Shown: in pieces, positions 1,678 through 33,092 of the stretch
Layout of the letters: every line of letters begins with the position of its first letter
Position numbering within the stretch: position 1 is the stretch's first letter
Source: a virus
IMG/VR virus record: IMGVR_UViG_3300017917_003453
Coordinates: 1 to 34,915 of that record
Length of the DNA stretch: 34,915 nt
Strand: one strand, 5' to 3'
The notes under the pieces: model-generated
Seen by the model: only the letters and a program-made list of their open reading frames with translations
Database searches by the model: none
What the model was told of the DNA's origin: nothing
Position numbers and translations under genes: made by a program

Positions 1678-2529
1678 ATGAGCTACGCCAACTTCATCAA
1701 GGAGGTCTGGAGCGCCGCCATCCTCGAGGCCTCCGAGACCGCACTCGTCTTCGGCTCGGTCGTGAACCGCGACTACGAGGGCGAGATCACCGCCGGTGGC
1801 GACACCGTGCGGATCAACACCATCGGCGACCCGACGGTGAAGACCTACGACCGCGCGAGCGCCATCGACGCGGCCGAGACCCTCGAGTCGGCCCAGCAGC
1901 TGCTGGTGATCGACCAGGAGAAGTACTTCAACGTGAAGGTCTCCGACATCGACCGGGTCCAGGCCAACGTCAACCTGATGGCCCAGGCCACCAAGCGCGG
2001 CGGCTACCGCCTCGCCAAGACGGCCGACTCGTTCCTGGCGACGACCCTCGCCAACGGCACGTCGGCCGGCAACACCCTCAGCGACGCCAGCATCTCGAAG
2101 CAGGCGTCGAGCGACGACGCCTACGAGCTGCTCGTGGAGCTCGGCGTCGCCCTCGACGAGGTGGACGTGCCCGACACGGAGCGCTTCTGCATCGTGTCGC
2201 CGGCGTTCCACGGCCTGATGCTGCGTGACGCTCGCTTCGTGAGCTTCGGCACCGACCGCAACGGCGAGACCCTCGCCAACGGCAAGATCGGTGCCGCCGC
2301 CGGGTTCACGCTCTACAAGAGCAACCAGCTGACGACCGACGCGTCCGGCAACGCCACCCTCCAGGCCGGCCACCCGATGGCCGCGACCTTCGCCCAGCAG
2401 CTCCTCGAGACCGAGGCGTACCGCCCCGAGCTCGGCTTCGACGATGCCGTCAAGGCCTTGCACGTGTACGGCGCCAAGGTCACCCGCCCGGAGTTCCTCG
2501 CCAAGGTCGAGGTCGCCATCGGCAGCTGA
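1678..2529 (+). CDS. Major capsid protein
   Basis: 283 residues; the ATG follows GGAAAGGGACCCCC, which supplies the ribosome site. The N-terminal part (FIKEVWSAAILEA, then VVNRDYEGEI and GDTVRINTIGD) matches the pattern of HK97-fold coat proteins of P22/N4-gp56-like families in actinobacterial siphoviruses. The middle has ERFCIVSPAFHGLMLRD, a common region of these coat proteins. The length is usual. It lies after the scaffold and before a small decoration-like gene, and an 11-bp hairpin follows it, consistent with a highly expressed transcript. It is a possible target of the glycosyltransferases encoded just downstream. Confidence 0.9.
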   Translation: MSYANFIKEVWSAAILEASETALVFGSVVNRDYEGEITAGGDTVRINTIGDPTVKTYDRASAIDAAETLESAQQLLVIDQEKYFNVKVSDIDRVQANVNLMAQATKRGGYRLAKTADSFLATTLANGTSAGNTLSDASISKQASSDDAYELLVELGVALDEVDVPDTERFCIVSPAFHGLMLRDARFVSFGTDRNGETLANGKIGAAAGFTLYKSNQLTTDASGNATLQAGHPMAATFAQQLLETEAYRPELGFDDAVKALHVYGAKVTRPEFLAKVEVAIGS

Positions 2530-2623: not shown

Positions 2624-2989
2624 ATGGCACGAGACGCAGTCACCATCATCGAGGTCGCGGCGGGCACGCCCGTCGACCGCGGCGCCGGCACCACGATCAA
2701 CACCAGCAACGGTGCGTCGATCGACTGCGACGGCGACACGAGCGACCTGCTCATCATCGTCACCAACACCAACACCACGCCGGACCACGACCTCACCGTC
2801 CAGGCCGGCGACACCAACCCGCCCGCCATCCAGAACGGCATGGGCGACCTGGTGTTCACCGTGAACGCCGCCGAGTCCTGGCTCGTCGTCGACGGCGCCC
2901 GGCACGTCAACGCCGACGGGAAGATCTACCTGGACTTCGAGTCCGGGTTCGCCGGCAAGGTCCACGCCATCCGGCTCGTCGGCGTCTGA
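2624..2989 (+). CDS. Putative capsid decoration/head stabilisation protein
   Basis: 121 residues; the ATG is preceded by GAGAGAGG. The sequence is rich in short beta-prone segments (LLIIVTNTNT, DLTVQAGD, LVFTVNAAESWLVVD, IYLDFESGFAGKVHAIRL) with many N, T and D residues and no catalytic signature. Small all-beta proteins directly after the major capsid gene are usually cement or decoration proteins on the capsid surface, or head fibre bases. That makes this a candidate acceptor for sugars added by the next three genes. The structural role is inferred from position and composition. Confidence 0.6.
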   Translation: MARDAVTIIEVAAGTPVDRGAGTTINTSNGASIDCDGDTSDLLIIVTNTNTTPDHDLTVQAGDTNPPAIQNGMGDLVFTVNAAESWLVVDGARHVNADGKIYLDFESGFAGKVHAIRLVGV

Positions 2990-3005: not shown

Positions 3006-3695
3006 ATGGTCGACACCGGCACGATGGTCGCCATCATCGTGCCGGTGCTCGGCCGCCCTCACCGGGTCGGGCCACTGCTGGCCGACATCACCGCCGGCAC
3101 GCCCGAGCCGCATCGGGTCCTGTTCGTCTGCGACCCGGACGACCACGCCACCATCCACGCCTGCTCCGACGAGGGAGCCGACTGGCTGGCCGACTGGTCC
3201 CCGACGCCGTCGTACGCCACCAAGATCGACCTGGGCTACCAGGGCAGCGTCGAGCCGTGGATCTTCACCGCGGCGGACGACCTGCACTTCCACCGGGGCT
3301 GGCTCACCGAAGCCCTCCGGGTCGCCGAGCTCACCGGCGCCAAGGTGGTCGGCACCGTCGACCTCACCAACGACAAGGTCACCGCCGGCGAGCACTCGAC
3401 GCACACCCTGATCGCCCGCAGCTACTGCGACGACCCGGGGGCGTGCGTCGACGGGCCGTACACGGTGATGCACCCGGGCTACAGCCACGAGTACGTCGAC
3501 GACGAGCTCGTCTGCACCGCCAAGGCCCGCGGCGTGTGGGCCCATGCGTCCGGCTCGGTCGTCGAGCACCTCCACCACCGCCGCCGTGCCGGCCAGGCGC
3601 TGCCCGACGACGACACCTACCGCAAGGGCCGCGCCAGCCGCCGAGCCGACCGGGCCCTGTTCGAGTCCCGACGCCACCTGTGGGAGGCCGCGTGA
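3006..3695 (+). CDS. GT-A/GT2-like glycosyltransferase, first of three
   Basis: 229 residues; the ATG follows AGGAGCGG (2993-3000). It starts with the hydrophobic first strand of a Rossmann-like fold (VAIIVPVLGRPHRVGPLL), the classic opening of family 2 glycosyltransferases. It has an Asp pair at D91-D92 (FTAADDLHFHRGW) in the place of the metal/nucleotide-sugar DxD motif. A His/Tyr-rich region follows (HPGYSHEYVDDE), as in acceptor-side segments. It likely transfers a sugar from an NDP-sugar in the cytoplasm. Its stop overlaps the next start (GTGA), suggesting coupled translation. The acceptor is unknown; virion protein is more likely than DNA given the position. Confidence 0.75.
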   Translation: MVDTGTMVAIIVPVLGRPHRVGPLLADITAGTPEPHRVLFVCDPDDHATIHACSDEGADWLADWSPTPSYATKIDLGYQGSVEPWIFTAADDLHFHRGWLTEALRVAELTGAKVVGTVDLTNDKVTAGEHSTHTLIARSYCDDPGACVDGPYTVMHPGYSHEYVDDELVCTAKARGVWAHASGSVVEHLHHRRRAGQALPDDDTYRKGRASRRADRALFESRRHLWEAA

Positions 3696-4366
3696 TCGTC
3701 GTCATGACGGCCGTGTTCGGCGGCCACGACGTGCTCCTCCCACCGGAGCCGCAGTACATCGACGCCACCTGGCTGGTCGTCACCGACGACCCGCACCTCG
3801 ACCCGCCCGAGCCGTGGCAGCCGATCGTGCTCGACGAGCGCCACCCGGCCATGGCCTACGACCACCCGCGCATGCGCACCGTGTGGGCGAAGTGCCTGCC
3901 GTGGCAGTTCACCCATGAGCGCTGGGTGATCTGGATCGACGCCAACAGCCAGGTCGTCTCGCCGGACTTCGTGGGCGAGGCGCTCTCCGCCGCCCCTTCG
4001 GGGTTCGCCACCTACGCCCACCCGGACCGGGACTGCATCTACGACGAGGCCGAGGCGTCACACCGGCTGCAGCCCGTGAAGTACCAGGGCCAGCCGCTCA
4101 CCGAGCAGGTCACCCACTACCGCAGCCAGGGCCACCCCGAGCACTGGGGGCTGTACGCCGTCGGCACGATCGTCCGCAACTGCGCGTCGGAGATGGTCCG
4201 CACGATCGGCGTCCGCTGGCTCGGCGAGTGCGAGCGCTGGTCGTACCAGACGCAGCTGTCGCTGCCGCCGATCTGCCGGGACCTCGACTTCCGACCCGAC
4301 ACCTTCGACCATCACCAGCGGCGCTCGCCGTGGCTGGCGATCCGACCCCACCTGACCGACCGTTGA
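3692..4366 (+). CDS. Glycosyltransferase-like protein, TOD1/MUCI70 (DUF616)-like, second of three
   Basis: 224 residues from a GTG at 3692 that overlaps the previous stop by 4 nt. It begins with a beta-strand (VIVVMTAVFGGHDVL). It carries a WVIWIDANSQV motif at residues ~78-88 that resembles the Asp-centred nucleotide-sugar site of the DUF616/TOD1 glycosyltransferase-like group, and HxxMAYDHPRMRTVWAK ahead of it. Late residues contain TIVRNCASEMVRTIGVRWLGECERWSYQTQLSLP cut here into known sub-motifs (RNC, W-GECERWS-DQ-like). The fold family is reasonably clear; the sugar and acceptor are not. It lies in a coupled cassette with two other transferases. Confidence 0.65.
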   Translation: MIVVMTAVFGGHDVLLPPEPQYIDATWLVVTDDPHLDPPEPWQPIVLDERHPAMAYDHPRMRTVWAKCLPWQFTHERWVIWIDANSQVVSPDFVGEALSAAPSGFATYAHPDRDCIYDEAEASHRLQPVKYQGQPLTEQVTHYRSQGHPEHWGLYAVGTIVRNCASEMVRTIGVRWLGECERWSYQTQLSLPPICRDLDFRPDTFDHHQRRSPWLAIRPHLTDR

Positions 4367-5082
4367 AGGTCTCGATGCTCGTGCCGTTCCGCCCCGACGG
4401 CGACCACCGTGACGCCGTGTGGTCGTGGCTGCGGCGCCGCTGGGAGCAGCTGCTCCCGGACTGGCAGATCGTCGAAGGCGTCCACGACCCCGACGACGGG
4501 CCGTGGTGCAAGGCCATCGCCCTGGAGGCCGCCACCTGGGGCGCCGAGGGCGACGTGTACGTCGTCATGGACGCCGACCTCATCATCGACGCCGAGGCGC
4601 TGCGAGCCGCCGCCACGGACGCCGTGTGGGCGCCGTGGGTGGTGCCGCACGCCAAGGTGCGCCGCTACACCCACGAGACCACCCAGGCGCTGCTGGAGGC
4701 GCCACCGACCTGCGAGCCCCCCGACCCGACCACCCTCGACGTGCCCGAGCAGACGGTGTGTGAAGGCGGCGGGATCGTCGTGCTCACCGCCGAGGCCTAC
4801 CAGCGCGCCGGCGGCATGGACCCCCGCTTCCGAGGCTGGGGATTCGAGGACTCGTCGTGGGGCTACCAGCTCGAGGCCCTCCTCGGCCCACCCCTGTGCG
4901 GCGACCACGTCGCCTGGCACCTGTGGCACCCGACCGCCCGCGGCCAGCACCGCCGCCCCCGCGCCGGCGACGGCGTCGGCGGCGAGCTGCGCAAGCGGTA
5001 CCAGGAGGCCCGCAGCGACCCGGCCGCCACCGCCCTGCTGATCGGAGAACGCCATGCGATACCGCAACCGCAACACCGGTGA
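4363..5082 (+). CDS. Glycosyltransferase with GT2/GT7-C features, third of three
   Basis: The start is TTG at 4363, which overlaps the previous stop as TTGA; an ATG four codons later (4375) is the alternative. The product is 239 (or 235) residues. It has an N-terminal strand VSMLVPFRPDGDHRD, a DxD motif at D70-x-D72 (VVMDADLIID), and GGMDPRFRGWGFEDSSWGY at ~150-168. The last matches the G(W)GxED acceptor/catalytic-base motif of galactosyltransferase C-terminal (GT7C) and polypeptide GalNAc-transferase-like enzymes. This is the most confidently enzymatic of the trio. The last 29 nt overlap the next gene. It likely glycosylates a virion surface protein. Confidence 0.82.
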   Translation: MKVSMLVPFRPDGDHRDAVWSWLRRRWEQLLPDWQIVEGVHDPDDGPWCKAIALEAATWGAEGDVYVVMDADLIIDAEALRAAATDAVWAPWVVPHAKVRRYTHETTQALLEAPPTCEPPDPTTLDVPEQTVCEGGGIVVLTAEAYQRAGGMDPRFRGWGFEDSSWGYQLEALLGPPLCGDHVAWHLWHPTARGQHRRPRAGDGVGGELRKRYQEARSDPAATALLIGERHAIPQPQHR

Positions 5083-5245
5083 GGAGCGCGTCACGGTCGA
5101 CGGCTCCCGCCTCGACAAGCGCGTGAAGGCCGACCCCAACTGGGAGCCGGTGCCCGAGACGCTGCCGGCCAACGTCGACGAGCGGCCCGACGACGCCGAC
5201 CCCGGCGACCCGACCGACGGCCTCCTCGACGAGGACGTGGCCTGA
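5054..5245 (+). CDS. Small acidic protein in the head-completion module
   Basis: 63 residues; the ATG is preceded by GGAGAACGCC inside the end of the third glycosyltransferase gene. The N-terminus is basic (MRYRNRNTGEERVTVDGSRLDKR) and the C-terminus strongly acidic with D, P and E (RPDDADPGDPTDGLLDEDVA). Such short charged proteins are common between capsid and connector genes in actinophages, but no function is established. The gene abuts the adaptor gene, which starts 2 nt after its stop. Confidence 0.65.
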   Translation: MRYRNRNTGEERVTVDGSRLDKRVKADPNWEPVPETLPANVDERPDDADPGDPTDGLLDEDVA

Positions 5246-5246
5246 C

Positions 5247-5675
5247 GTGGCCTACGCCACCACCGACCAGCTGCGCACCTACCTCGGCGGCGTGCAGCTA
5301 CCCCAGGACCACAAGCGCATGCTGGACCGGGCGTCCGAGCTGATCGACGACGCCCTCATCGGGGTCGTCTACGACGTCGACGCCTCCGGCAACCCCACCG
5401 ACGACGACGTCGAGACCGCCCTCGCCAACGCCGTGTGCGCCCAGGTGGAGTGGTGGATCGAGACCGGCGACGAGCACGGCCTCGCGTCGCAGTTCTCGTC
5501 CGTGTCGGCCGGGTCCGTGTCGCTCGTCCGGGCCAACTCGGCCACCTCCGGCACCCCGGCCGGACCCGTAGCCCCCCGAGCGATCCGCCACCTGCGCGTC
5601 GCCGGCCTCAACGCCACCCCCGGCACGCTGCCCCGCACCGCCGCCGACGCCTTCTTCGGGTCCAACCCGTCGTGA
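5247..5675 (+). CDS. Head-tail connector/adaptor protein
   Basis: 142 residues from a GTG directly after the preceding stop. The opening YATTDQLRTYLGG and following helices (KRMLDRASELIDDALIG, then VETALANAVCAQVEWWIETGD) match the helical pattern of gp6/gp15-type adaptors, which dock on the portal. The C-terminal part is Ala/Pro/Gly-rich and probably flexible. It is first of four small connector genes in the usual order (adaptor, stopper, neck, tail completion). The next start overlaps its stop. Confidence 0.75.
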   Translation: MAYATTDQLRTYLGGVQLPQDHKRMLDRASELIDDALIGVVYDVDASGNPTDDDVETALANAVCAQVEWWIETGDEHGLASQFSSVSAGSVSLVRANSATSGTPAGPVAPRAIRHLRVAGLNATPGTLPRTAADAFFGSNPS

Positions 5676-6759: not shown

Positions 6760-7188
6760 ATGCCAGCAACCAAGATCAACGCCCGCGGCTGGACGTTCGA
6801 GATCGAGAACAACGCCGCCACGCCCGCCTACGTCGAGATCGGCGGCATCACCGAGTTCACGATCTCGCGCAGCTCCAAGGACGTGGAGCTCACCGACTTC
6901 GACTCCGACGGTGACGCCGAGTCCGAGAAGATGGAGCGCGGCAAGTCCATCACCGTGAAGGGGTTCTACAAGGAGGACGCCTCCGGGAACATGGACACCG
7001 GCCAGGCCGAGGTCGAGGAGGTCGCCGACGCCAAGGGCTCGGCGTCGCTGCGCAACTTCCGCATCACCTCGCCCAACGGCGACGCCTACGTGTGGTCGGC
7101 GCACTTCGAGATCGGCGACGTCGGCGGCGGCAACAACGACAAGACGTCGTGGGGCTTCACCGCGGTGCGGTCCGGCGCCGACTCGTGA
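6760..7188 (+). CDS. Major tail tube protein
   Basis: 142 residues; the ATG follows AGGAGACCACC. It contains strands ITEFTISRSSKDVELTDFD, then KMERGKSITVKGFY and SLRNFRITSPNGDAYVWSAHFEIGDV. This beta-sandwich pattern with a charged loop (SDGDAESEKMERG) is that of siphovirus tail tube subunits. It is followed by the tail assembly chaperones and tape measure, the near-universal order in long-tailed phages. The stop overlaps the next GTG. Confidence 0.85.
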   Translation: MPATKINARGWTFEIENNAATPAYVEIGGITEFTISRSSKDVELTDFDSDGDAESEKMERGKSITVKGFYKEDASGNMDTGQAEVEEVADAKGSASLRNFRITSPNGDAYVWSAHFEIGDVGGGNNDKTSWGFTAVRSGADS

Positions 7189-13939: not shown

Positions 13940-14343
13940 CCGTCGACTGGTCCGCCCTCGCCCGCATCACCGACGACGGAGACCCCGCGGTCATCGACCC
14001 CCTCACCTACAGCACCGTCGTCTACTTCGACGGCGAGGACGTCTCGGCGGGCACCTGGAGCGGCTACGTGAAGAACGAGCTGACCGACACCGCGCCGCTC
14101 GCCCTCACCATCGGCGTGGCCGTCGACTACGACGCCAACGCCGTCGACGAGGACGGCGACGCCATCGAAGGCGGCGCCACGTCCGTCGAGGTGAGCTTCG
14201 ACGGCGACGAGCTCCAGGCCCTCATCGAGGACGGCCAGACCGAGTGGAACGGCTGGCTGGAGGTGTCGCGGCCCGACGACCCGGTCAAGGGGTTCGTGGC
14301 TGAGATCCGCATCCGCCGCAACGTCAACTGGACCGCCGCGTGA
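13936..14343 (+). CDS. Beta-rich small structural protein upstream of the fibre
   Basis: 135 residues from a GTG overlapping the holin stop. It is acidic, with alternating strands (YSTVVYFDGEDVSAGTW, LTIGVAVDYDANA, TSVEVSFDGDELQALIED, FVAEIRIRRNVNW). Small beta-sandwich proteins next to tail fibres often serve as fibre attachment or receptor-binding adaptors. I see no known catalytic motif. It is coupled to the fibre gene by a 4-nt overlap. Confidence 0.55.
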   Translation: MTVDWSALARITDDGDPAVIDPLTYSTVVYFDGEDVSAGTWSGYVKNELTDTAPLALTIGVAVDYDANAVDEDGDAIEGGATSVEVSFDGDELQALIEDGQTEWNGWLEVSRPDDPVKGFVAEIRIRRNVNWTAA

Positions 14344-17300
14344 GCACCCGCATCCGGCACACCACCACGACGGTGCGCGTGCAGGCCGCCGGCGCGCGCA
14401 CGCGTGTGCGCAACGTCCAGCAGGTCACCCGCATCCGCGTCGGCGGTGTGGGCGCGCCGATCGCCAGGGGCGTCAAGTACCTCTCCCGCTGGCCGGGCAC
14501 CGATCGCACCGGAGCCACCGACTGCGGCACCGCTGTTCAGGCGGCGATCACGGCGTGGGGCGGCACATACACGATCGTCGTGGACGGCGTGTTCAAGTGC
14601 ACGTCGGAACCTCTGGACCTGCCGTCGGGCACCCAGCTCATCGCGGCGCGCCCCGGGGTCGACGGGTTCACCTTCGGGTGGTCGCTCGCGTCGTCGGGCA
14701 CCTACTACCTCGGCAACTCCACGACCGACGGCACCGTGTCGGGCATCCGGCTCGAGGGGCTGAAGATCACCGGCGCCGGGGACGGTACGCCCTGGGGGTC
14801 GAATCAGGTCAGCGGTACACCCGTCAACGGGATCAAGCTACTCAACGTCACCGACTGCGTCATCGACGGCTGCGTCTTGTACCGGGTGCCCGGCATCGCC
14901 ATCAACTATGCGGGCGTCCGAGGGATGCTCATCACGAACAACCGCATCAGCGAGTGCGGGCGTGACGGCATCTCGGGCTTCTACACGGCGACCGGTGGGT
15001 TCTCCAATGTCCGCATAGCCGACAACGAGGTGTGGCTCAACGGTGACGACGGCATCGTCATTTGGGCCGACTCCGACACGCTCACGAACGGCACCGCCGC
15101 CACCGTCGCCACGACCGCCAACTCGACCGCGATCACCGGGTCGGGTACGTCGTGGACCTCGGCCGACGTCGGTAAGACCATCGTGCTCCCCACAGCTGGC
15201 GTCGACGGCAACCTGCTGGAAACCACCATCGCCGCTGTAGCGAGCACGACGAGCGCCACCCTCACGCATCCCGCGTCGGTGACGGTGGCGTCAGAGTCAG
15301 CCACCTACGGCATCGTTCGCCCGACGAACTACGCCATCGTCGGCAACGTCATCCGCAGCGCCAACGTGTCAGACGCCCTCGGCGGTAACCGCGCCATCGC
15401 CCTACGGGGCTGCGGGTTCGGCGTCGTGTCCGGGAACACCACGTCAGAGTCGTTCGGCGCCGCCCTCGAGGTCGGGCCGGCGTCGTCCAATGCGAACATC
15501 TACTCCCGCAACGTGACGGTCACGGGCAACACGTTCGACCGGGGCGGCTACTACGGCGGCACGGCGACGCGACGCCAGGGCATCGACCTGCGTTACGCCA
15601 TCGAGTGCACCATCACCGGCAACGTCGTGACGCGCTCCTACGGCGACGGCATCTCAGCCATCTACACGCAGAACTGCTCGATCGTCGGCAACACCGTGAG
15701 CGAGTCGGGCGACTACGGCATCCGGGCCAACGGCCAGAACGCCACCAACCGCGCCAACCGTGGGCTGCGCATCGCCAACAACACCGTCACGCGTTCCTAC
15801 TCGGGCGGCATCCGCTCGGACCAGTCCTTCGTGCACATCGTCGACAACGAGTGCAACAACAACGGCACCAACGGCGGCCTTGCCGCCACCGACTACGGCA
15901 TCTACCTGAGCGGCCAAGGGGACGCGCTGGTGGTCGGCAACCGTTGCACCGACACCCGCGCCACCGGGGCGAAGACGCAGGCCGGTGGCATCTACGTGTC
16001 GGCAGCCTACGCCGGCCAGGCCATCGTCATCGGCAACATCCTGACGGGCACCGCCGGCACCGCCCTGTTCCGTGGCACGACGTTCATGGAGATGGGCAAC
16101 CTGTGTTCGACGTCGAACCAAGCCCTGAACCATTGGGCGATGCACACCGGCGTTGAGATCCACTCCGGGTCAGGTTCGCCGGAGTCGGCGGTGAGCGCGC
16201 CCGTCGGGTCGCTGTACCTGCGCTCGGACGGCTCGGCCGGCACGTCGTTCTACGTGAAAGAGTCGGGCACCGGTAACACCGGGTGGTCGACCGTCGGCGG
16301 CATGAGCGCCGCCGCCATCCTCGCCGCGCTGGTTACCGTCGACGGCGCCGGCTCGGGCCTCGACGCCGACCTGCTCGACGGCCAGTCGAGCGCCTACTAC
16401 GCCACGGCCTCGAGCGTGTCCGACCACCTGGCCGACACCGTCGACGCTCACGACGCCTCGGCGATCAGCTACGCCGGGTCGACGAACCTGGCCGCCACCG
16501 ACGTCGAGGCCGCCCTCGACGAGTTGGACGGCGAGAAGGTGGCGAAGGCCGGCGACACGATGGCCGGCCCGCTGCTGCTGCCGAACGGCACGGCGTCCAA
16601 CCCGGCGCTCGGGTTCTCCACCGACCCCGATACGGGCCTCGTGCTCATCGGCGACGCCGTCATGGGCCAGTACGTCGCGGGGGCGCGGATCGCGTCGTGG
16701 GAGGCGTCGCTTCTGCGCCTGTCCGACGCCGTGAACATCGCCCTGAACACGTCGACCGGCACAAAGCTCGGCACCTCGACGACGCAAAAGCTCGGGTTCT
16801 GGAATGCCACGCCGGTCGTGCGGGCCACGGTCACCGGCACGAACACGCTGACCGTGCTCGACTCGCTGCTGTCGACGCTCGCGACCTACGGCCTGATCGC
16901 CGACACGACCGGGACGCTCGTGCTCGCCGACGGCGACATTCCATCGACGATCGCCCGTGACACCGAGGTCACGGCAGCGATCACGACGCACGCCGCCGAC
17001 ACCGACCCGCACGGTGACCGGGCCTACGCCCTCGGCCTGGTCGACGACCTGTCGGGCGTGAGTAACGCACCGACGGCCCGCACGAACCTCGGCCTAGGCG
17101 GGTCGGCGACCCTGAACGTCGGCACGACGGCCGGCACCGTCGCCGCTGGCGATCACAACCATTCGGGCGTCTACGACCCCGCCGGCACCGCCGCCGCGGC
17201 CGTGTCGACGCACGAGGGCCTCGCCGACCCGCACCCGGGCTACCTGCTCGAGTCGGCCGCCGGCGACCTCGCCCTGCTCGACACGGTCGGCGCTGCGCAG

Positions 17301-17561
17301 ATCGACGCCGACGCCGTCGGCGCGTCCGAGCTGGCGGTCGACGCCGTGGTCGACGAGAACGTCGCCGCGGCGGCGAACATCGCCGGCTCGAAGATCGCCG
17401 CAGCGACCGACACGACGCGCGGCGCCGTCGAGCTCGCGACCGCCGCCGAGGTGCTCGCCGGCACCGACACGTCGAGGGCCGTCACGCCCGCGGGTGCCGG
17501 CGCCACCTACCCGACGTTCGGCCGAGCGGTGATGATCGCCGCCGGCAACTACCTACCGTAA
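14340..17561 (+). CDS. Tail fibre/tailspike with right-handed beta-helix
   Basis: 1073 residues from a GTG overlapping the previous stop; the largest gene. Residues ~40-80 (RWPGTDRTGATDCGTAVQAA) are the typical opening of the pectate-lyase-like superfamily. Residues ~130-600 are a right-handed parallel beta-helix with many short NNRI/GNxxxSGxYGI turns. A beta-sandwich-like module appears inserted at ~242-322 (SADVGKTIVLPTAGVDGN). The C-terminal ~400 residues are fibre-like, with three H-(4-6 residues)-D-x-H patterns (DHLADTVDAHD, THAADTDPHGD, THEGLADPHPG) and an ending AAEVLAGTDTSRAVTPAG. It may bind or cut a surface polysaccharide. Catalytic residues were not identified. Confidence 0.85.
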   Translation: MSTRIRHTTTTVRVQAAGARTRVRNVQQVTRIRVGGVGAPIARGVKYLSRWPGTDRTGATDCGTAVQAAITAWGGTYTIVVDGVFKCTSEPLDLPSGTQLIAARPGVDGFTFGWSLASSGTYYLGNSTTDGTVSGIRLEGLKITGAGDGTPWGSNQVSGTPVNGIKLLNVTDCVIDGCVLYRVPGIAINYAGVRGMLITNNRISECGRDGISGFYTATGGFSNVRIADNEVWLNGDDGIVIWADSDTLTNGTAATVATTANSTAITGSGTSWTSADVGKTIVLPTAGVDGNLLETTIAAVASTTSATLTHPASVTVASESATYGIVRPTNYAIVGNVIRSANVSDALGGNRAIALRGCGFGVVSGNTTSESFGAALEVGPASSNANIYSRNVTVTGNTFDRGGYYGGTATRRQGIDLRYAIECTITGNVVTRSYGDGISAIYTQNCSIVGNTVSESGDYGIRANGQNATNRANRGLRIANNTVTRSYSGGIRSDQSFVHIVDNECNNNGTNGGLAATDYGIYLSGQGDALVVGNRCTDTRATGAKTQAGGIYVSAAYAGQAIVIGNILTGTAGTALFRGTTFMEMGNLCSTSNQALNHWAMHTGVEIHSGSGSPESAVSAPVGSLYLRSDGSAGTSFYVKESGTGNTGWSTVGGMSAAAILAALVTVDGAGSGLDADLLDGQSSAYYATASSVSDHLADTVDAHDASAISYAGSTNLAATDVEAALDELDGEKVAKAGDTMAGPLLLPNGTASNPALGFSTDPDTGLVLIGDAVMGQYVAGARIASWEASLLRLSDAVNIALNTSTGTKLGTSTTQKLGFWNATPVVRATVTGTNTLTVLDSLLSTLATYGLIADTTGTLVLADGDIPSTIARDTEVTAAITTHAADTDPHGDRAYALGLVDDLSGVSNAPTARTNLGLGGSATLNVGTTAGTVAAGDHNHSGVYDPAGTAAAAVSTHEGLADPHPGYLLESAAGDLALLDTVGAAQIDADAVGASELAVDAVVDENVAAAANIAGSKIAAATDTTRGAVELATAAEVLAGTDTSRAVTPAGAGATYPTFGRAVMIAAGNYLP

Positions 17562-18024: not shown

Positions 18025-18935
18025 TGCAGGACACGCTCGGCCAGGTGACGCCCGCCGGCACGTTCGAGGCCGTGTTCTACGGCAGCTCGTCGAACAACTG
18101 GCAGCGGTGGGAGAAACCGCGCGGCGCCCGGCTCGTGTCGTTCCTGCTGATCGGCGCCGGCGCGGGTGGTGGCGGCGGGTCGACCGGCGCTGCGGGCACG
18201 GTGCGCGGCGGCGGTGGCGGCGGCGGTGGTGGGGCGATCACCCGCCTGCTGATCCCCGCCATGCTGCTACCCGACGTGCTGTTCGTACAGCCCGGCGCCG
18301 GCGGCGCCGGCGGCGCAGCAGGCGCTACGGGCGTCACCGGCGGCACGGGTGGACGGTCCTACGTGTCGACGTCCGCGACCACCACGGCAGCGAGCCTCAT
18401 CGGTATCTCGGGCGCGGCTGACGCCGGCGGCGGCGTCGGCGGGTCGACCTCGGCCGGAACCGCTGGCCCGGCGGGCACGATCGCCACGACCGCCCTGGCG
18501 CCCGGCCACAACCTCGGCGCCGCCTCGTTCATCGCCGGCGTGGCGGGCGGCGCTGCGGGCGCGGTCGGCGGCGCTGCGGGCGGTTCTATTGCGTCGATCA
18601 CGAACGGCGTGTACGTCGCCGGCGGGTCAGGCGGCGGCACCACCCCGGCGGCGAACACCAACTTCGCCGGTGGATCTCAGACGGGCGCCGGGTGGGGGTC
18701 GACGATCAGCGGCCCGTCGGGCGGCACCGGTAACCCTGGGTCCGACGGTCGGATCATCTGGCAGCCGCTCATGTCGCAAGGTGGCTGCGGTGGCGGCACG
18801 AACGGCGCAGCGGGCACCGCCGGCGCTGGGGGTAACGGCGCCTACGGCGCGGGCGGCGGCGGTGGTGGCGGCGGCGTCACGGGCGGCGCCGGCGGCAACG
18901 GCGGTCACGGCCTCGTCATCATCGTGTGTAGCTGA
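18024..18935 (+). CDS. Glycine-rich tail adhesin-like protein
   Basis: 303 residues. A short N-terminal domain (FYGSSSNNWQRWEKPRGARL, then FLLIGAGAG) precedes long Gly-rich stretches, with runs of five to nine Gly and repeated GGAGG/GTGG units separated by short variable segments. It closes with HGLVIIVC. Gly-rich domains of this type occur in phage tail tip adhesins, where stacked poly-Gly II helices hold receptor-binding loops, as in T-even gp38-like proteins. The variable inter-Gly segments are candidate recognition loops. It is the last gene of the late operon and precedes a strong terminator. Confidence 0.7.
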   Translation: MQDTLGQVTPAGTFEAVFYGSSSNNWQRWEKPRGARLVSFLLIGAGAGGGGGSTGAAGTVRGGGGGGGGGAITRLLIPAMLLPDVLFVQPGAGGAGGAAGATGVTGGTGGRSYVSTSATTTAASLIGISGAADAGGGVGGSTSAGTAGPAGTIATTALAPGHNLGAASFIAGVAGGAAGAVGGAAGGSIASITNGVYVAGGSGGGTTPAANTNFAGGSQTGAGWGSTISGPSGGTGNPGSDGRIIWQPLMSQGGCGGGTNGAAGTAGAGGNGAYGAGGGGGGGGVTGGAGGNGGHGLVIIVCS

Positions 18936-18975
18936 TCGCCGAGCGCTCCCCTGGATCGCACCGTCCCCTGGTGCA

Positions 18976-19015
18976 GCCCCCCGCCCCCGGTCGCCTCACC
19001 GGGTAGGCGGGGGGC
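18976..19015 (+). terminator. Strong hairpin terminator ending the late operon
   Basis: GCCCCCCGCC (18976-18985) pairs perfectly with GGCGGGGGGC (19006-19015). Inside it, CCCGGT (18986-18991) pairs with ACCGGG (18998-19003), and TTCTT follows. The extended stem is very stable and sits 40 nt after the glycine-rich gene stop. This is the clearest intrinsic terminator in the window. Confidence 0.85.
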
Positions 19016-19022
19016 TTCTTCG

Positions 19023-19040
19023 CGTCCCGGCTTCGGGACG
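19023..19040. repeat. Small inverted repeat next to the late terminator
   Basis: CGTCCCG (19023-19029) and CGGGACG (19034-19040) form a 7-bp stem with a 4-nt loop (GCTT). It may be a second terminator stem or a binding site near attP. The rest of the 18936-19097 gap shows nothing else clear. Confidence 0.5.
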
Positions 19041-19097
19041 ATGTGTCCGTTCGCGCGCACGGCGGCCGCGTCACCCCAGGTCAGCAGCCATACTCCC

Positions 19098-19157
19098 GTG
19101 GCTTGAGGGGCTAGTGCCCGCAAGGGCGTGGGGGTTCAAGTCCCCCCTCCGACACCA
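19098..19157 (+). other. attP: attP core: 3' half of tRNA-Leu(GAG)
   Basis: Aligned by eye, this is the end of a class II tRNA-Leu: anticodon loop TTGAGGG with anticodon GAG, variable arm GCCC-GCAA-GGGC, T arm GGGGG-TTCAAGT-CCCCC, acceptor strand CTCCGAC, discriminator A and encoded CCA. The D arm and 5' acceptor strand are absent upstream, and the 5' anticodon stem is imperfect, so this is not a working tRNA gene. The 3' half of a tRNA beside a tyrosine integrase is the standard attP design; integration would rebuild the host tRNA. It sits between the late terminator and int, so the window shows the non-integrated form. Confidence 0.85.
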
Positions 19158-19191
19158 GGCCGCTGACCAGGTAATACGCAGGTCAGCGGCC
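19158..19191 (+). terminator. Perfect 11-bp hairpin immediately after the tRNA CCA
   Basis: GGCCGCTGACC (19158-19168) pairs with GGTCAGCGGCC (19181-19191) across 12 nt (loop AGGTAATACGCA), followed by GTTTCAC. Its position right behind the tRNA end suggests a terminator that replaces the host tRNA terminator after integration. It could instead be part of the integrase complex. No strong U-tract is present. Confidence 0.6.
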
Positions 19192-19212
19192 GTTTCACGC
19201 TCCGGGCGGGCG

Positions 19213-19260
19213 CGTCACGCCGTCACACCCCGCAGGTACGTTTACCCCCGTGTACCCCCG
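19213..19260. repeat. Short direct repeats near attP, possible integrase arm sites
   Basis: TACCCCCG occurs at 19243-19250 and 19253-19260, ten bases (one helical turn) apart. CGTCAC occurs at 19213-19218 and 19221-19226. They lie between the attP hairpin and int. Helically phased short repeats here could be arm-type sites for integrase or excisionase, or elements of the int promoter. This is an inference from spacing alone. Confidence 0.35.
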
Positions 19261-19296
19261 AGTCCCCCCGGCGCATGTGTCCGCCTGGTGTCCGCG

Positions 19297-20346
19297 GTGA
19301 GCATCCACAAGACCCCCGCCGGCACGTGGAAGGTCCGATGGCGCGACGCCACCGGCGCCCACTCGCGCACCTTCCGCCTCAAGGACGACGCCAAGGACTA
19401 CGAGGCCGACCTCCGGCGGGGCGTCGCGGCAGCCACCAGCGGCGGCCGCATCACCGTCAAGGCGTGGTCCGAGATGTGGCTCGACTCGGCCGTCAACCTC
19501 GGCCCCGGCGGCCGCCAGGCCTACACCTGGGAGCTGGCCCGGATCATCCCTGCGCTCGGCGACCTGCGCCTCGTCGACGTCACGGCCGCCCGGGTGTCGC
19601 GGTTCCTCGCCGACGAAGCCGCCGCCGGGTACGCACCCTCGACCGTGCACCGCCGCTACCGGACGCTGCGCCGCATGTTCGGCGTCGCCGTCGCCCAGGG
19701 CCGCCTCGCCGCCAACCCGTGCGCCCAGGTCGACCCGCCGAGAGTGCCGCGCAGCGAGATGCTGTACCTCACCGCCGAGGAGCTCGACCGGCTCGCCGGC
19801 GCCGTGGCCGACCGCTACGTCGCCCTGGTGCTCGTCGCCGGATGGGGTGGCCTGCGCTGGTCCGAGCTCGTCGGCCTCCGGCGCCGCAACGTCGATGACG
19901 GGCGCGTGCACGTGCGCGAGCAGCTGGTGTGGCGGACCGGCACGGGCTGGGACCGATGCCAACCCAAGACCGACCAGAGCGTGCGCAGCGTGACCCTGCC
20001 GCGGTCGGTCGCCGACACCCTCGACGTGCACTTGGCCGAGTTCACGAGGGCCGACCGGGACGCCCTCGTGTTCACGAACGGTCGAGGCGGGCCGCTCGGC
20101 TCGTCATCGTTCCGGTCCCACCACTGGAAGCCCGCGCTCGAGCGGGCCGACGTCGACCCGGCGCTGCGGTTCCATGACCTGCGCCACACGGCTGTGGCCC
20201 TGGCCATCGCCGCCGGCGCCCACCCCAAGTCGATCCAGGCCCGGATGGGGCACAGCAGCATCACCGTGACGTTGGACCGGTACGGGCACCTGTTCCCCGA
20301 CCTCGACGACCGCCTGGCCGACGCCCTCGACGCTCTGCGCAGCTGA
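19297..20346 (+). CDS. int: Tyrosine integrase
   Basis: 349 residues from GTG 19297; a GTG at 19288 is in frame, and no good ribosome site is visible for either. The N-terminal ~50 residues form an arm-binding-like beta domain (IHKTPAGTWKVRWRDATGAH). Residues ~52-145 form the SAM-like core-binding domain. The catalytic domain from ~155 has R187 (GLRWSEL), K224 (QPKTDQSVRSVTLP), H293-x-x-R296 (FHDLRHT), H319 (MGHSSI) and the nucleophile Y329 (LDRYGH), all in the expected order. It catalyses integration and excision at attP. attP lies ~140 nt upstream, and a convergent small gene ends 2 nt after its stop. Confidence 0.92.
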   Translation: MSIHKTPAGTWKVRWRDATGAHSRTFRLKDDAKDYEADLRRGVAAATSGGRITVKAWSEMWLDSAVNLGPGGRQAYTWELARIIPALGDLRLVDVTAARVSRFLADEAAAGYAPSTVHRRYRTLRRMFGVAVAQGRLAANPCAQVDPPRVPRSEMLYLTAEELDRLAGAVADRYVALVLVAGWGGLRWSELVGLRRRNVDDGRVHVREQLVWRTGTGWDRCQPKTDQSVRSVTLPRSVADTLDVHLAEFTRADRDALVFTNGRGGPLGSSSFRSHHWKPALERADVDPALRFHDLRHTAVALAIAAGAHPKSIQARMGHSSITVTLDRYGHLFPDLDDRLADALDALRS

Positions 20347-21543: not shown

Positions 21544-21711
21544 ATGTTCGGTGACGTGGAAGCTGAACTGGATGAGGTGACCCGGCTTCGCCGCCGGGTC
21601 GAGGAGTTGGAGTCGGAGCGGAGGTTCCTGGTGGAAGCCCTCTCCCAGGGCGGTGCGCTCATCTGCGCAGCGCTTGAGCGCGCCCGCGAGCCCGTGCCGC
21701 TTCGTAGGTGA
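21544..21711 (+). CDS. Possible short coiled-coil protein
   Basis: 55 residues from ATG 21544 (GTG 21556 also possible). A leucine/valine heptad pattern runs through EAELDEVTRLRRRVEELESE and RRFLVEALSQGG, suggesting a coiled-coil dimer. It has no clear ribosome site, overlaps the 3' end of the repressor gene on the other strand by 53 nt, and is preceded by a sequence also found upstream of int. It could be a small regulator, or a chance open frame. Confidence 0.4.
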   Translation: MFGDVEAELDEVTRLRRRVEELESERRFLVEALSQGGALICAALERAREPVPLRR

Positions 21712-22033
21712 CCGCCAGGAGCTCCCGGCCCTCATCCGTGAGTTCCGGGTCGGCCTCCAGCGCGGCGAGCACCCCGTCAGCCGACGGGCCGTAGCCGCAT
21801 GCGCTGAGGACCCAGCCCGGGGGCCGGTCGCACGCCTGCTCGATCCGCACGAGCTCGTCGATGGTGGGGGGCCGCTTTCCGGTCTCGATCTCGCTCATGG
21901 TCGGCTGGGTGACGCCGATGGCGGCGGCGAGCTCGCCCTGCTTGAGGCGGTCTGCCCTGGCGCGCCTGACGGCGGCTCCGAGGTCCATGGGGTCGATGGT
22001 GAGGGGTCCGGTCGACCGTGGCAAGCGGGGCAT
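21659..22033 (-). CDS. Phage repressor, XRE-family (CI-like)
   Basis: 124 residues from ATG 22033, 6 nt after a TAGAAT -10 box, which argues for a leaderless start there; an internal Met at codon 16 (MDLGAAV) is the alternative. The helix-turn-helix is clear: KQGELAAAIGVTQPTMSEIETGKRPP, with recognition helix around TQPTMSEIETG (residues ~43-53). The C-terminal half is helical, without an autopeptidase motif, so it is shorter than LexA-like repressors. It is divergent from the Cro-like gene with two operators between them. It should hold the lytic operon silent in the lysogen. How it is inactivated on induction is not evident. Confidence 0.83.
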   Translation of the reverse strand: MPRLPRSTGPLTIDPMDLGAAVRRARADRLKQGELAAAIGVTQPTMSEIETGKRPPTIDELVRIEQACDRPPGWVLSACGYGPSADGVLAALEADPELTDEGRELLAVTYEAARARGRAQALRR

Positions 22034-22110: not shown

Positions 22111-22383
22111 ATGAGAGCGACCCCAGCACACGTCCTGCTCACGAAGTCGTGGGGCGAGCGAGTCCGCAGCCGGCGCACCGGGCTGGGCCTGACCCAGGCG
22201 GCGCTGGCCGAGCGGGTCGGCTGTCACCAGTCCACGGTGAGCGAGATCGAGACCGGCTCGTACGCGGCGATCAAGCCCGAGATGCTGCTGCGCATCGCGG
22301 TGGCGCTCGACATCGAGCCCGAGCAGCTGTTCCCGTGGCCCCACGGGATCGGCATGGTCGCTGCGACCCAGGCGGTGGCGTGA
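22111..22383 (+). CDS. Cro-like XRE-family regulator
   Basis: 90 residues from ATG 22111, which is probably at the transcript start. The HTH is LGLTQAALAERVGCHQSTVS-EIETG (residues ~24-49), followed by helices EMLLRIAVALDIEPEQLF. It is the first gene of the rightward operon, opposite the repressor, which is the Cro position. It likely competes for the same two operators and favours the lytic path. The stop overlaps the next ATG (TGATG). Confidence 0.82.
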   Translation: MRATPAHVLLTKSWGERVRSRRTGLGLTQAALAERVGCHQSTVSEIETGSYAAIKPEMLLRIAVALDIEPEQLFPWPHGIGMVAATQAVA

Positions 22384-22574
22384 TGCCGACGTCGCCGTAC
22401 CTGACCAAGGCCGAGGCCGCCGAGTACCTGCGGATCACCGAGAAGGCCCTGTCCCGCCTCGTCGAGGATCGCCGGATCCGCGCCCTGCAACCCGGCGGGC
22501 GCCGTGGCCGGTACTTCTTCACCCGCGCCGACCTCGACGCCTACATGAACCAGCGCGTGCTGGAGGCGTCGTGA
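22383..22574 (+). CDS. xis: Excisionase-like DNA-binding protein (HTH_17/MerR-like winged helix)
   Basis: 63 residues from ATG 22383. It opens with YLTKAEAAEYLRITEKALSR, then LVEDRRIRALQP and RGRYFFTRADLDAYM, which is the standard excisionase/HTH_17 pattern: helix-turn-helix plus a short beta wing. It most likely directs integrase to excise, as recombination directionality factor. It lies directly behind the Cro-like gene, so it is expressed on entry to the lytic path. A role as a transcription regulator is possible. Confidence 0.78.
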   Translation: MPTSPYLTKAEAAEYLRITEKALSRLVEDRRIRALQPGGRRGRYFFTRADLDAYMNQRVLEAS

Positions 22575-32008: not shown

Positions 32009-32619
32009 GCAGCCACGACACCGCAGGAACGCGCCCGACCGGTCGACGCGGCAAAGGCGCACACGGCCCGACCAAGGCCGAGGTGCTGGCGTTGGCGCAG
32101 CGCACCCAGGAGCGGCTCGACCGGCTCGTCGGTTGGCTGTCCACGCCGGGCCCGGACGGCCTGACGCCGCTGGACCGCCAGGCCGAGCACGAGGCGCACA
32201 TCTACGGCGACCGCGGCGAGTCGGCGGGGCGGAGCTCAGGGCCGGCGGACCCGACCGGCTCTGCGGCGCTGCGGCCGCACCCGAAGCCGCTGTCGCAGAC
32301 CCGGGAGCGGTTCGAGGCGATGTGCGGTGAGCTGTACGACCTCGAGCTGCTGGCGATCGAGCACCGGCCGCCGGAGGTCACGACCGAGCTGGCGTGGGCG
32401 AACGAGGACCCGGGCTGCCAGCCGTGCGCCCGGCTCGGCCATTGGTCGCCGGTGTACCGCACCGGGACGGTCGGCGGCGCGCTGTCGTTCTCGATGCGCC
32501 TGTGCCGCTGGGACTACGACCACGTGGCGCACACGGGCGAGCTGGCCGGCGAGGCGATCCGCGAGCAGTACCTGGCCGGCAAGACGCCGGTGGTGCGGGC
32601 CGAGGGGAGCGCGGCGTGA
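32005..32619 (+). CDS. Hypothetical protein with a CxxC site
   Basis: 204 residues from ATG 32005, overlapping the prior stop. The N-terminus is basic (TAGTRPTGRRGKGAHGPTKAEV). The middle is low in conserved motifs. A Cys pair in GCQPCARLGHWSPV (~137-142) and a Cys/Trp strand MRLCRWDYDHVA hint at a metal site. The last helix is EAIREQYLAGKTPVV. It is not recognised. It lies between the initiator-like gene and the GIY-YIG-type gene. Confidence 0.6.
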   Translation: MSSHDTAGTRPTGRRGKGAHGPTKAEVLALAQRTQERLDRLVGWLSTPGPDGLTPLDRQAEHEAHIYGDRGESAGRSSGPADPTGSAALRPHPKPLSQTRERFEAMCGELYDLELLAIEHRPPEVTTELAWANEDPGCQPCARLGHWSPVYRTGTVGGALSFSMRLCRWDYDHVAHTGELAGEAIREQYLAGKTPVVRAEGSAA

Positions 32620-33092
32620 GCGGGCCGGCGCACTGCTGCATCCCGGTCCGGCGCAACGGCGCCGAAGAACCGTGCGGCAACGAGGTCATGGGATCGACGC
32701 CGCATCCAGCGGTGTGCCAGCGCCACGCCGAGCAGCTGCGCGGGTGGTTCGACCGAGAGCGTGAGCGCTTCGCCGAGGTGCGCCTCGTCGAGCACCTGGA
32801 GGCTGAGCGTCAGCGCCTCACGGGCGGGGTCGTGTACTTCATTCGGCAGGGCGACTTCGTGAAGATCGGAACGTCGCGCCAGCTCGACAAGCGGCTCTCG
32901 ACCCTTCGCCAGGAGTGGGGCGACTTCGAGTACTTGGGCTCTATCCCGGGCGGGTTCAAGCGTGAGCAGAAGCTTCACCGGCGCTTCGCCCAGCTCCGGG
33001 TGCTGGGTGAGTGGTTCGAGGCCAGCCCGGAGCTACTCGCGTTCATCGCCGAACAGCTGGACGCCACCTCCGGGCAGGCTGCACGGCCCTGA
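32616..33092 (+). CDS. GIY-YIG/T5orf172-like nuclease-family protein
   Basis: 158 residues from a GTG overlapping the prior stop. Residues ~70-140 carry VVYFIRQGDFVKIGTSR, RLSTLRQEWGDFEYLGSIP and KREQKLHRRFAQL, the layout of T5orf172/MUG113-type GIY-YIG proteins: two short motif strands, a basic helix and a downstream Glu. The N-terminal ~40 residues have several Cys and His (CCIPVRRNGAEEPCGNEV) and may bind zinc. It should cut or bind DNA. It lies directly before the terminase promoter, so a role in packaging or DNA processing is plausible, not shown. Confidence 0.72.
   Translation: MSGPAHCCIPVRRNGAEEPCGNEVMGSTPHPAVCQRHAEQLRGWFDRERERFAEVRLVEHLEAERQRLTGGVVYFIRQGDFVKIGTSRQLDKRLSTLRQEWGDFEYLGSIPGGFKREQKLHRRFAQLRVLGEWFEASPELLAFIAEQLDATSGQAARP

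What the first reader, a model, noticed from the sequence alone, without database searches (positions are those of the whole stretch)
3006..5082. Three coupled glycosyltransferases inserted between capsid and connector genes
Three different transferase types (GT2-like, TOD1/DUF616-like, GT7C-like) sit in one translationally coupled cassette just after the capsid and decoration genes. Three enzymes suggest a stepwise glycan built on a virion protein rather than a single sugar. Phage virion glycosylation is known in actinophages, but a compact three-fold-type set here would be unusual. Candidate acceptors are the decoration protein (Ser/Thr/Asn-rich) and the capsid protein. DNA modification is possible but less likely given the late-operon position.
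Basis: partly seen in the sequence, partly recalled or inferred. Interest (0 to 1): 0.68.

Follow-up and report, generated by a model that had tools for sequence, protein, structure and literature searches.

The report
Phage enzymes sugar-coating virion C-terminal serines
An environmental bacterial virus carries three linked sugar-transferring enzymes beside its capsid gene that most likely attach a small sugar chain to the last amino acid (a serine) of its own capsid and tail-tube proteins, a coating known from a few cultured mycobacterial phages that appears to be widespread in uncultured phages and may be predictable from how those proteins end.

Summary
The three genes are real, tightly overlapping (GTGA and TTGA junctions) and encode GT-A/TOD1/GT7C-type glycosyltransferases (GTa, GTb, GTc) in the head-gene operon. 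The virion-glycosylation reading is well supported; "unusual" is not: cultured cluster O mycobacteriophages carry three tandem GTs near the capsid gene (PMC11600133). GTc belongs to the family of Che8 gp109, part of a proven cassette. GTa is a phage family found in 73 IMG/VR loci and in none of 50,697 deposited phage genomes; in 30 of 68 dereplicated loci it joins a five-GT island next to head genes. The same trio, in the same order, occurs as one fused ~700-aa protein beside capsid genes of other uncultured phages. New here: in phages with these GTs the capsid protein ends in Ser (52/52 dereplicated) and so does the tail tube (22/22), usually -GS or -AS, against 34/106 and 14/43 without a GT nearby and 1/116 for portal, terminase, protease and scaffold proteins. 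The window's capsid (AIGS) and tail tube (GADS) fit; its decoration protein (LVGV) does not. Best reading: stepwise O-glycosylation of C-terminal Ser of capsid and tail tube. Glycan and donors are untested; GTb has lost a motif Asp and may be altered or inactive.

The parts
1678..2529 (+). Major capsid protein (283 aa); predicted acceptor, C-terminal EVAIGS (last two codons 2521-2526)
   Evidence: phrog_267 1.1e-68, Pfam Phage_capsid_4 7.5e-14; C-terminus
2624..2989 (+). Decoration-like protein (121 aa), ends RLVGV; probably not the acceptor
   Evidence: phrog_24894 1.3e-17, function unknown; C-terminus
3006..3695 (+). GTa: GT-A fold glycosyltransferase of a phage-specific family; ADD at 3273-3281, DDE at 3498-3506, HLH at 3567-3575
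3692..4366 (+). GTb: TOD1/MUCI70-type glycosyltransferase (GTG start, overlaps GTa by 4 nt); WID at 3932-3940, RDCIYDEAE at 4028-4054; Thr codon 4250-4252 where relatives have Asp
   Evidence: Pfam TOD1_MUCI70 2.4e-9; alignments
4363..5082 (+). GTc: Glyco_transf_7C-type glycosyltransferase (TTG start, overlaps GTb by 4 nt); DAD at 4570-4578, GWGFED at 4834-4851
   Evidence: Pfam 6.3e-7, phrog_1721 8.1e-17; family shared with Che8 gp109
5054..5245 (+). Small gene (63 aa) overlapping the end of GTc; unknown
   Evidence: no Pfam or PHROG match
5247..5675 (+). Head-tail adaptor, ends GSNPS (possible minor acceptor)
   Evidence: phrog_541 2.3e-18; C-terminus
6760..7188 (+). Major tail (tube) protein, ends RSGADS; predicted second acceptor
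   Evidence: phrog_3884 4.4e-23; C-terminus

Best explanation
The three genes form a virion-protein glycosylation cassette. GTa, GTb and GTc, made together from overlapping reading frames in the late head operon, build a short glycan in steps with host nucleotide sugars. The glycan is O-linked to the C-terminal Ser of the capsid protein (AIGS) and of the tail-tube protein (GADS), so that the surface of head and tail carries a sugar coat. Shown: genes, families, GT-A fold of GTa, conserved place beside capsid genes, natural fusion of the trio, correlation of GTs with Ser-ended capsid and tube proteins. Inferred: that the terminal Ser is the attachment site in this phage, the order of action (GTa first is a guess), the sugars, and that GTb is active in spite of its changed motif.
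For: GT families and fold. GTc profile matches Che8 gp109 (1.1e-19), Phrappuccino gp143/144 and Wildflower GT35 (4e-23); Che8 gp110 and Corndog gp38 are described as essential for capsid glycosylation (PMC12363180) and glycans sit at the C-termini of capsid and tail-tube subunits (PMC12619734). GTa loci: head genes upstream and connectors/tail tube downstream where contigs are long enough. Same trio as one fused protein right after capsid and adaptor genes in L025 and L026 (51/43/37% identity for L025, same order). Capsids with a GT within 8.5 kb end in Ser 52/52, without 34/106, Fisher 7e-19; 17 of those 52 come from loci fetched after the pattern was seen and all 17 fit. Tubes 22/22 against 14/43, p 3e-8. 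Controls in GTa loci: portal, terminase, protease, scaffold 1/116 Ser. The window's own capsid family: Ser in the window and in Che8; not in 8 dereplicated environmental relatives nor in phiSASD1, Dubu, AGM2, D6E, none of which has a GT2. Cultured GT phages looked up afterwards: Wildflower VGS/GDS, Jabbawokkie DES/DES, Sbash TAS/DGS.
Against: No biochemistry. Phrappuccino has GTs but its capsid ends KAA, and phiAsp2's annotated capsid ends CCP. In capsid family c47 many Ser-ended capsids have no GT nearby, and a whole-record GT2 search did not separate them from the others (1 of 12 against 1 of 14). On capsid trees independent changes are few (3 in c17, 9 in c47) and the paired test has no power, so the p-values overstate independence; the strength lies in agreement across several capsid families and the tail tube. 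GTb lacks the Asp of its S-x-x-D-Q-x-S motif.
Confidence: 0.72

Rival explanations
1. Virion glycosylation, but on another virion protein or an internal site (decoration protein, adaptor, tail spike); the C-terminal Ser is only a side feature of these phages.
For: Some adaptors, post-capsid genes and terminators also end in Ser (6/10, 9/15, 4/8); the window's adaptor ends NPS; the decoration-like protein is Thr/Asn-rich.
Against: Only capsid and tube are Ser-ended in every GT locus examined; capsid and tube ends co-vary even where no GT was found (both Ser 10, one only 2 and 3, neither 23; p 3e-5); the decoration-like protein ends in Val, and a similar small gene follows the capsid gene in GT-free L002.
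Confidence: 0.13
2. Lysogenic conversion: the enzymes glycosylate the host envelope (superinfection exclusion or receptor change). The phage looks temperate.
For: Integrase domain and HTH regulators in the window; temperate phages often carry GTs (established knowledge).
Against: Late structural position, no flippase-like gene in the cassette, conserved place beside capsid genes across many phages, Ser correlation.
Confidence: 0.06
3. DNA hypermodification by the GTs.
For: Phage GTs do modify DNA (Pyle 2024, cited in PMC12619734); GTa has a distant fold match to a TET-associated GT (rank 41).
Against: No thymidylate-synthase-like gene in the window; no TET/JBP hit (uninformative because nothing rang in controls); late position; virion-protein correlation.
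Confidence: 0.04
4. A partial relic: GTb is inactive and the cassette adds only one or two sugars, or nothing. This can be true together with the best explanation.
For: Thr replaces the Asp found in the GTb relatives aligned over this motif; the window has fewer GTs than most complete GTa loci.
Against: All three frames are open and coupled; motifs of GTa and GTc are intact.
Confidence: 0.2

Closest known systems
Mycobacteriophage virion glycosylation: Che8 gp108-110 (cluster F1) and Corndog/Wildflower cluster O cassettes of three GTs and an O-methyltransferase (Freeman 2023, read through PMC12363180, PMC12619734, PMC11600133)
   Same: Three overlapping GT genes, GTc family shared (Che8 gp109, Wildflower GT35), homologous capsid (Che8), Ser-ended capsid and tail tube
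   Different: GTa and GTb were not found in these phages; no gp110/gp38-family GT and no methyltransferase beside the cassette here; it lies between decoration-like and adaptor genes (Che8: far right end of the genome; Wildflower: between portal and protease)
GTa-type five-GT islands of uncultured phages (this work: L040, L058, L059, L074 and others)
   Same: GTa first and GTc last, next to head genes, Ser-ended capsid and tube
   Different: The window has GTb instead of GTd, GTe and GTf, and no methyltransferase
Fused GTa-GTb-GTc protein of L025 and L026 (this work)
   Same: Same three enzymes in the same order, just after capsid and adaptor genes; capsid ends GGAS
   Different: One ~700-aa polypeptide; GTb motif Asp kept
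TOD1_MUCI70 (PF04765) and Glyco_transf_7C (PF02709) families
   Same: GTb and GTc pass the curated cut-offs
   Different: Best-known members (from memory) act in plant or animal glycan pathways; acceptors here unknown

Membership tests
Phage virion-glycosylation system (Che8/Corndog type) | Two or more phage-encoded glycosyltransferases in one transcription unit | tested here: met
   Three overlapping GT genes
Phage virion-glycosylation system (Che8/Corndog type) | Homology to a GT of a proven cassette | tested here: met
   GTc family profile matches Che8 gp109 at 1.1e-19; GTa and GTb have no counterpart there
Phage virion-glycosylation system (Che8/Corndog type) | Homologue of the essential GT Che8 gp110 / Corndog gp38 | tested here: not met
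   The GTa and GTc profiles do not hit gp110; only the GTd and GTe profiles reach it weakly, and the window lacks GTd and GTe. So it works like, but is not the same cassette as, the Che8 type
Phage virion-glycosylation system (Che8/Corndog type) | Glycan on capsid and tail-tube C-termini | not testable with these tools
   Only the Ser-ended C-termini of both proteins could be shown
TOD1_MUCI70 (PF04765) | Curated score cut-off and family motifs | tested here: inconclusive
   37.4 bits against cut-off 21.4; WID and RDCIYDEAE kept, Asp of the DQxS motif replaced by Thr
Glyco_transf_7C (PF02709) | Curated score cut-off, DxD and GWGxED motifs | tested here: met
   29.4 bits against 23; DAD and GWGFED in the alignment
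GT2-like / GT-A fold (GTa) | GT-A fold with DxD-like motif | tested here: met
   pLDDT 92 model, top PDB matches are GT-A enzymes; invariant ADD, D.E and H.H; Pfam GT2 score below cut-off
DNA glycosylation / hypermodification | Enzyme making a hydroxymethylated pyrimidine | tested here: inconclusive
   No thymidylate-synthase homologue; TET/JBP search had no positive control

The most novel reading that the evidence does not exclude
A C-terminal small-residue-Ser end on capsid and tail-tube proteins is a portable glycosylation tag read by phage GT cassettes of several different make-ups, so that virion glycosylation can be predicted from sequence and is widespread in uncultured phages through a GT family (GTa) not seen in any deposited phage genome searched.
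Probability: 0.58. Interest if true: 0.8.

Novelty: new variant of a known kind. Interest (0 to 1): 0.63.

Why it matters
Proven phage virion glycosylation rests on a few mycobacteriophages. If the C-terminal Ser rule holds, it names the acceptor proteins and the attachment residue from sequence alone, extends the phenomenon to many uncultured phages, and offers minimal enzyme sets (three genes, or one fused protein) for testing. It makes the open question of what a sugar coat does for a phage in soil or water directly testable.

Tried and rejected
Decoration-like protein as acceptor: ends in Val. DNA modification: no supporting gene found. GTb model: pLDDT 56 with 5 rows, too poor for a fold search, so not used. 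GTa by tblastn with two different members found nothing in INPHARED. P0003 alone found no IMG/VR relatives by the pattern method; its profile did in fetched loci. Tree-based independent-pairs test: no power. The Freeman 2023 paper itself is not held; its results were taken from papers citing it. Cluster 0 had merged GTb with GTa through an overlapping frame; this was separated. A home-made gene caller picked antisense frames in this 71% G+C window and was not trusted.

Full report
WHAT IS THERE. The window is a 34,915-base virus record with about 71% G+C. It encodes a tailed phage: MuF, capsid, decoration-like protein, head-tail adaptor, major tail protein, tape measure, tail spike, integrase, DnaB-like helicase and terminase. 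Between the decoration-like gene and the adaptor lie three + strand genes in overlapping frames: GTa 3006-3695, GTb 3692-4366 and GTc 4363-5082. GTb and GTc pass curated Pfam cut-offs for TOD1_MUCI70 and Glyco_transf_7C; GTa does not pass any. A model of GTa built on 30 relatives has pLDDT 92 and its best PDB matches are GT-A glycosyltransferases.

RELATIVES. GTa was found in 73 IMG/VR loci by a two-pattern scan, which is a lower bound. It was in none of 50,697 deposited phage records by tblastn and in one short metagenome-derived contig out of about 85,000 genomes. All-against-all comparison of the neighbourhoods shows a repeated order: terminase, portal, protease, scaffold, capsid (often with an adaptor Ad1 gene), then GTa followed by other GTs and sometimes a methyltransferase, then connectors and tail tube. 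Of 68 dereplicated loci, 30 hold all five GT families GTa, GTd, GTe, GTf and GTc. Pfam places GTd and GTf members in GT2-type families; GTe members reach GT2 only weakly and match a PHROG galactosyl transferase. The GTb family follows GTa in L037, L064, L078 and L089. In L025 and L026 (and cut off by contig ends in L024 and L028) GTa, GTb and GTc form one open frame of about 700 residues, in the window's order, right after capsid and adaptor genes. Two of the window's nearest capsid relatives, L002 and L003, have no GT at this place.

LINK TO KNOWN VIRION GLYCOSYLATION. The GTc profile finds Che8 gp109, Phrappuccino gp143/144 and Wildflower GT35. Che8 gp108-110 and Wildflower gp34-36 are also three overlapping GT genes. 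Papers citing Freeman 2023 state that Che8 gp110 and Corndog gp38 are essential for capsid glycosylation (PMC12363180), that glycans are at the C-termini of capsid and tail-tube subunits (PMC12619734), and that cluster O phages have three tandem GTs that modify capsid and tail tube (PMC11600133). The original paper is not held, so I cannot say whether it already points to the terminal Ser; no held paper was found that does.

A C-TERMINAL SERINE. The capsid proteins in GTa loci, from four sequence clusters (PHROG major head families 10, 283 and 1328), all end in Ser after a small residue. After dereplication, 52 of 52 capsids with a GT within 8.5 kb end in Ser, against 34 of 106 without (Fisher 7e-19). 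By family: c17 14/14 against 6/46, c47 15/15 against 23/45, c34 15/15 against 4/6, c26 8/8. Seventeen of the 52 come from loci fetched after the pattern was noticed, and all fit. Major tail proteins: 22/22 against 14/43. Portal, terminase, protease and scaffold proteins of the same loci: 1/116. Capsid and tube ends co-vary even in loci with no GT found. In the c17 family a whole-record search found a GT2 in 3 of the 6 Ser-ended cases without a nearby GT and in 0 of 18 others; in c47 it found no difference. Cultured phages with GTs: Che8 TGS/DGS, Wildflower VGS/GDS, Jabbawokkie DES/DES, Sbash TAS/DGS, prophiGD91-2 capsid SGS; phiSASD1, Dubu, AGM2 and D6E, with no GT2 or GT7C found, end otherwise, and so does Giles, searched for GT7C only. 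Exceptions: Phrappuccino (KAA) and phiAsp2's annotated capsid (CCP). The window's capsid ends AIGS and its tail tube GADS; the decoration-like protein ends LVGV.

LIMITS. Related sequences share history, and tree counts show few independent changes, so p-values are too optimistic; agreement over several capsid families and a second protein carries the weight. Flanks are short for many contigs, so 'no GT' is uncertain. The pattern was found by looking, then tested on further loci and a handful of cultured phages. Nothing shows which sugar, which linkage or which enzyme acts first. That the phage uses host nucleotide sugars is inferred from the absence of recognised sugar-nucleotide genes among the window's scanned genes.

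GTb. All GTb relatives aligned over this region keep Asp in the S/T-x-R/Q-D-Q-x-S motif; the window has Thr (codon 4250-4252). Loss of activity, a changed specificity, or a compensated site are all possible.

VERDICT. This is a new variant of known phage virion glycosylation, with a testable acceptor rule.

Noticed in passing
L243, L130, L237, L266, L199, L201, L204: Capsid and tail tube share look-alike Ser-ended tails (for instance SSSSSSS and ESSSSSS; PAGSGS and VGSGS) although no GT of the five families lies nearby; a different modifying enzyme may be present.
   Followed up: partly
window 18349-20346, 21659-22033, 22111-22383, 22335-22574: Integrase domain, two divergent HTH regulators and an excisionase-like HTH_17 gene: the phage is probably temperate.
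   Followed up: no
window 32616-33092: MUG113/T5orf172 (GIY-YIG-like) gene close to the terminase end of the record.
   Followed up: no
window 14340-17561: 1073-aa tail-spike-like protein (phrog_2234).
   Followed up: no
L038, L055, L057, L077: In these loci GTa sits behind a portal gene and a long protease/portal-like head protein rather than behind one of the four capsid clusters; their acceptor was not examined.
   Followed up: no
L096 7684-12807: Caudovirales GX15bay (mangrove soil) has a run of GT genes with a methyltransferase upstream of its terminase, including relatives of GTd, GTe and GTf but no GTa.
   Followed up: partly
L095: The only GTa match in bacterial genomes is a 4.8-kb contig of an Acidobacteria bin with a capsid gene ending in Ser; probably a phage fragment.
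   Followed up: partly
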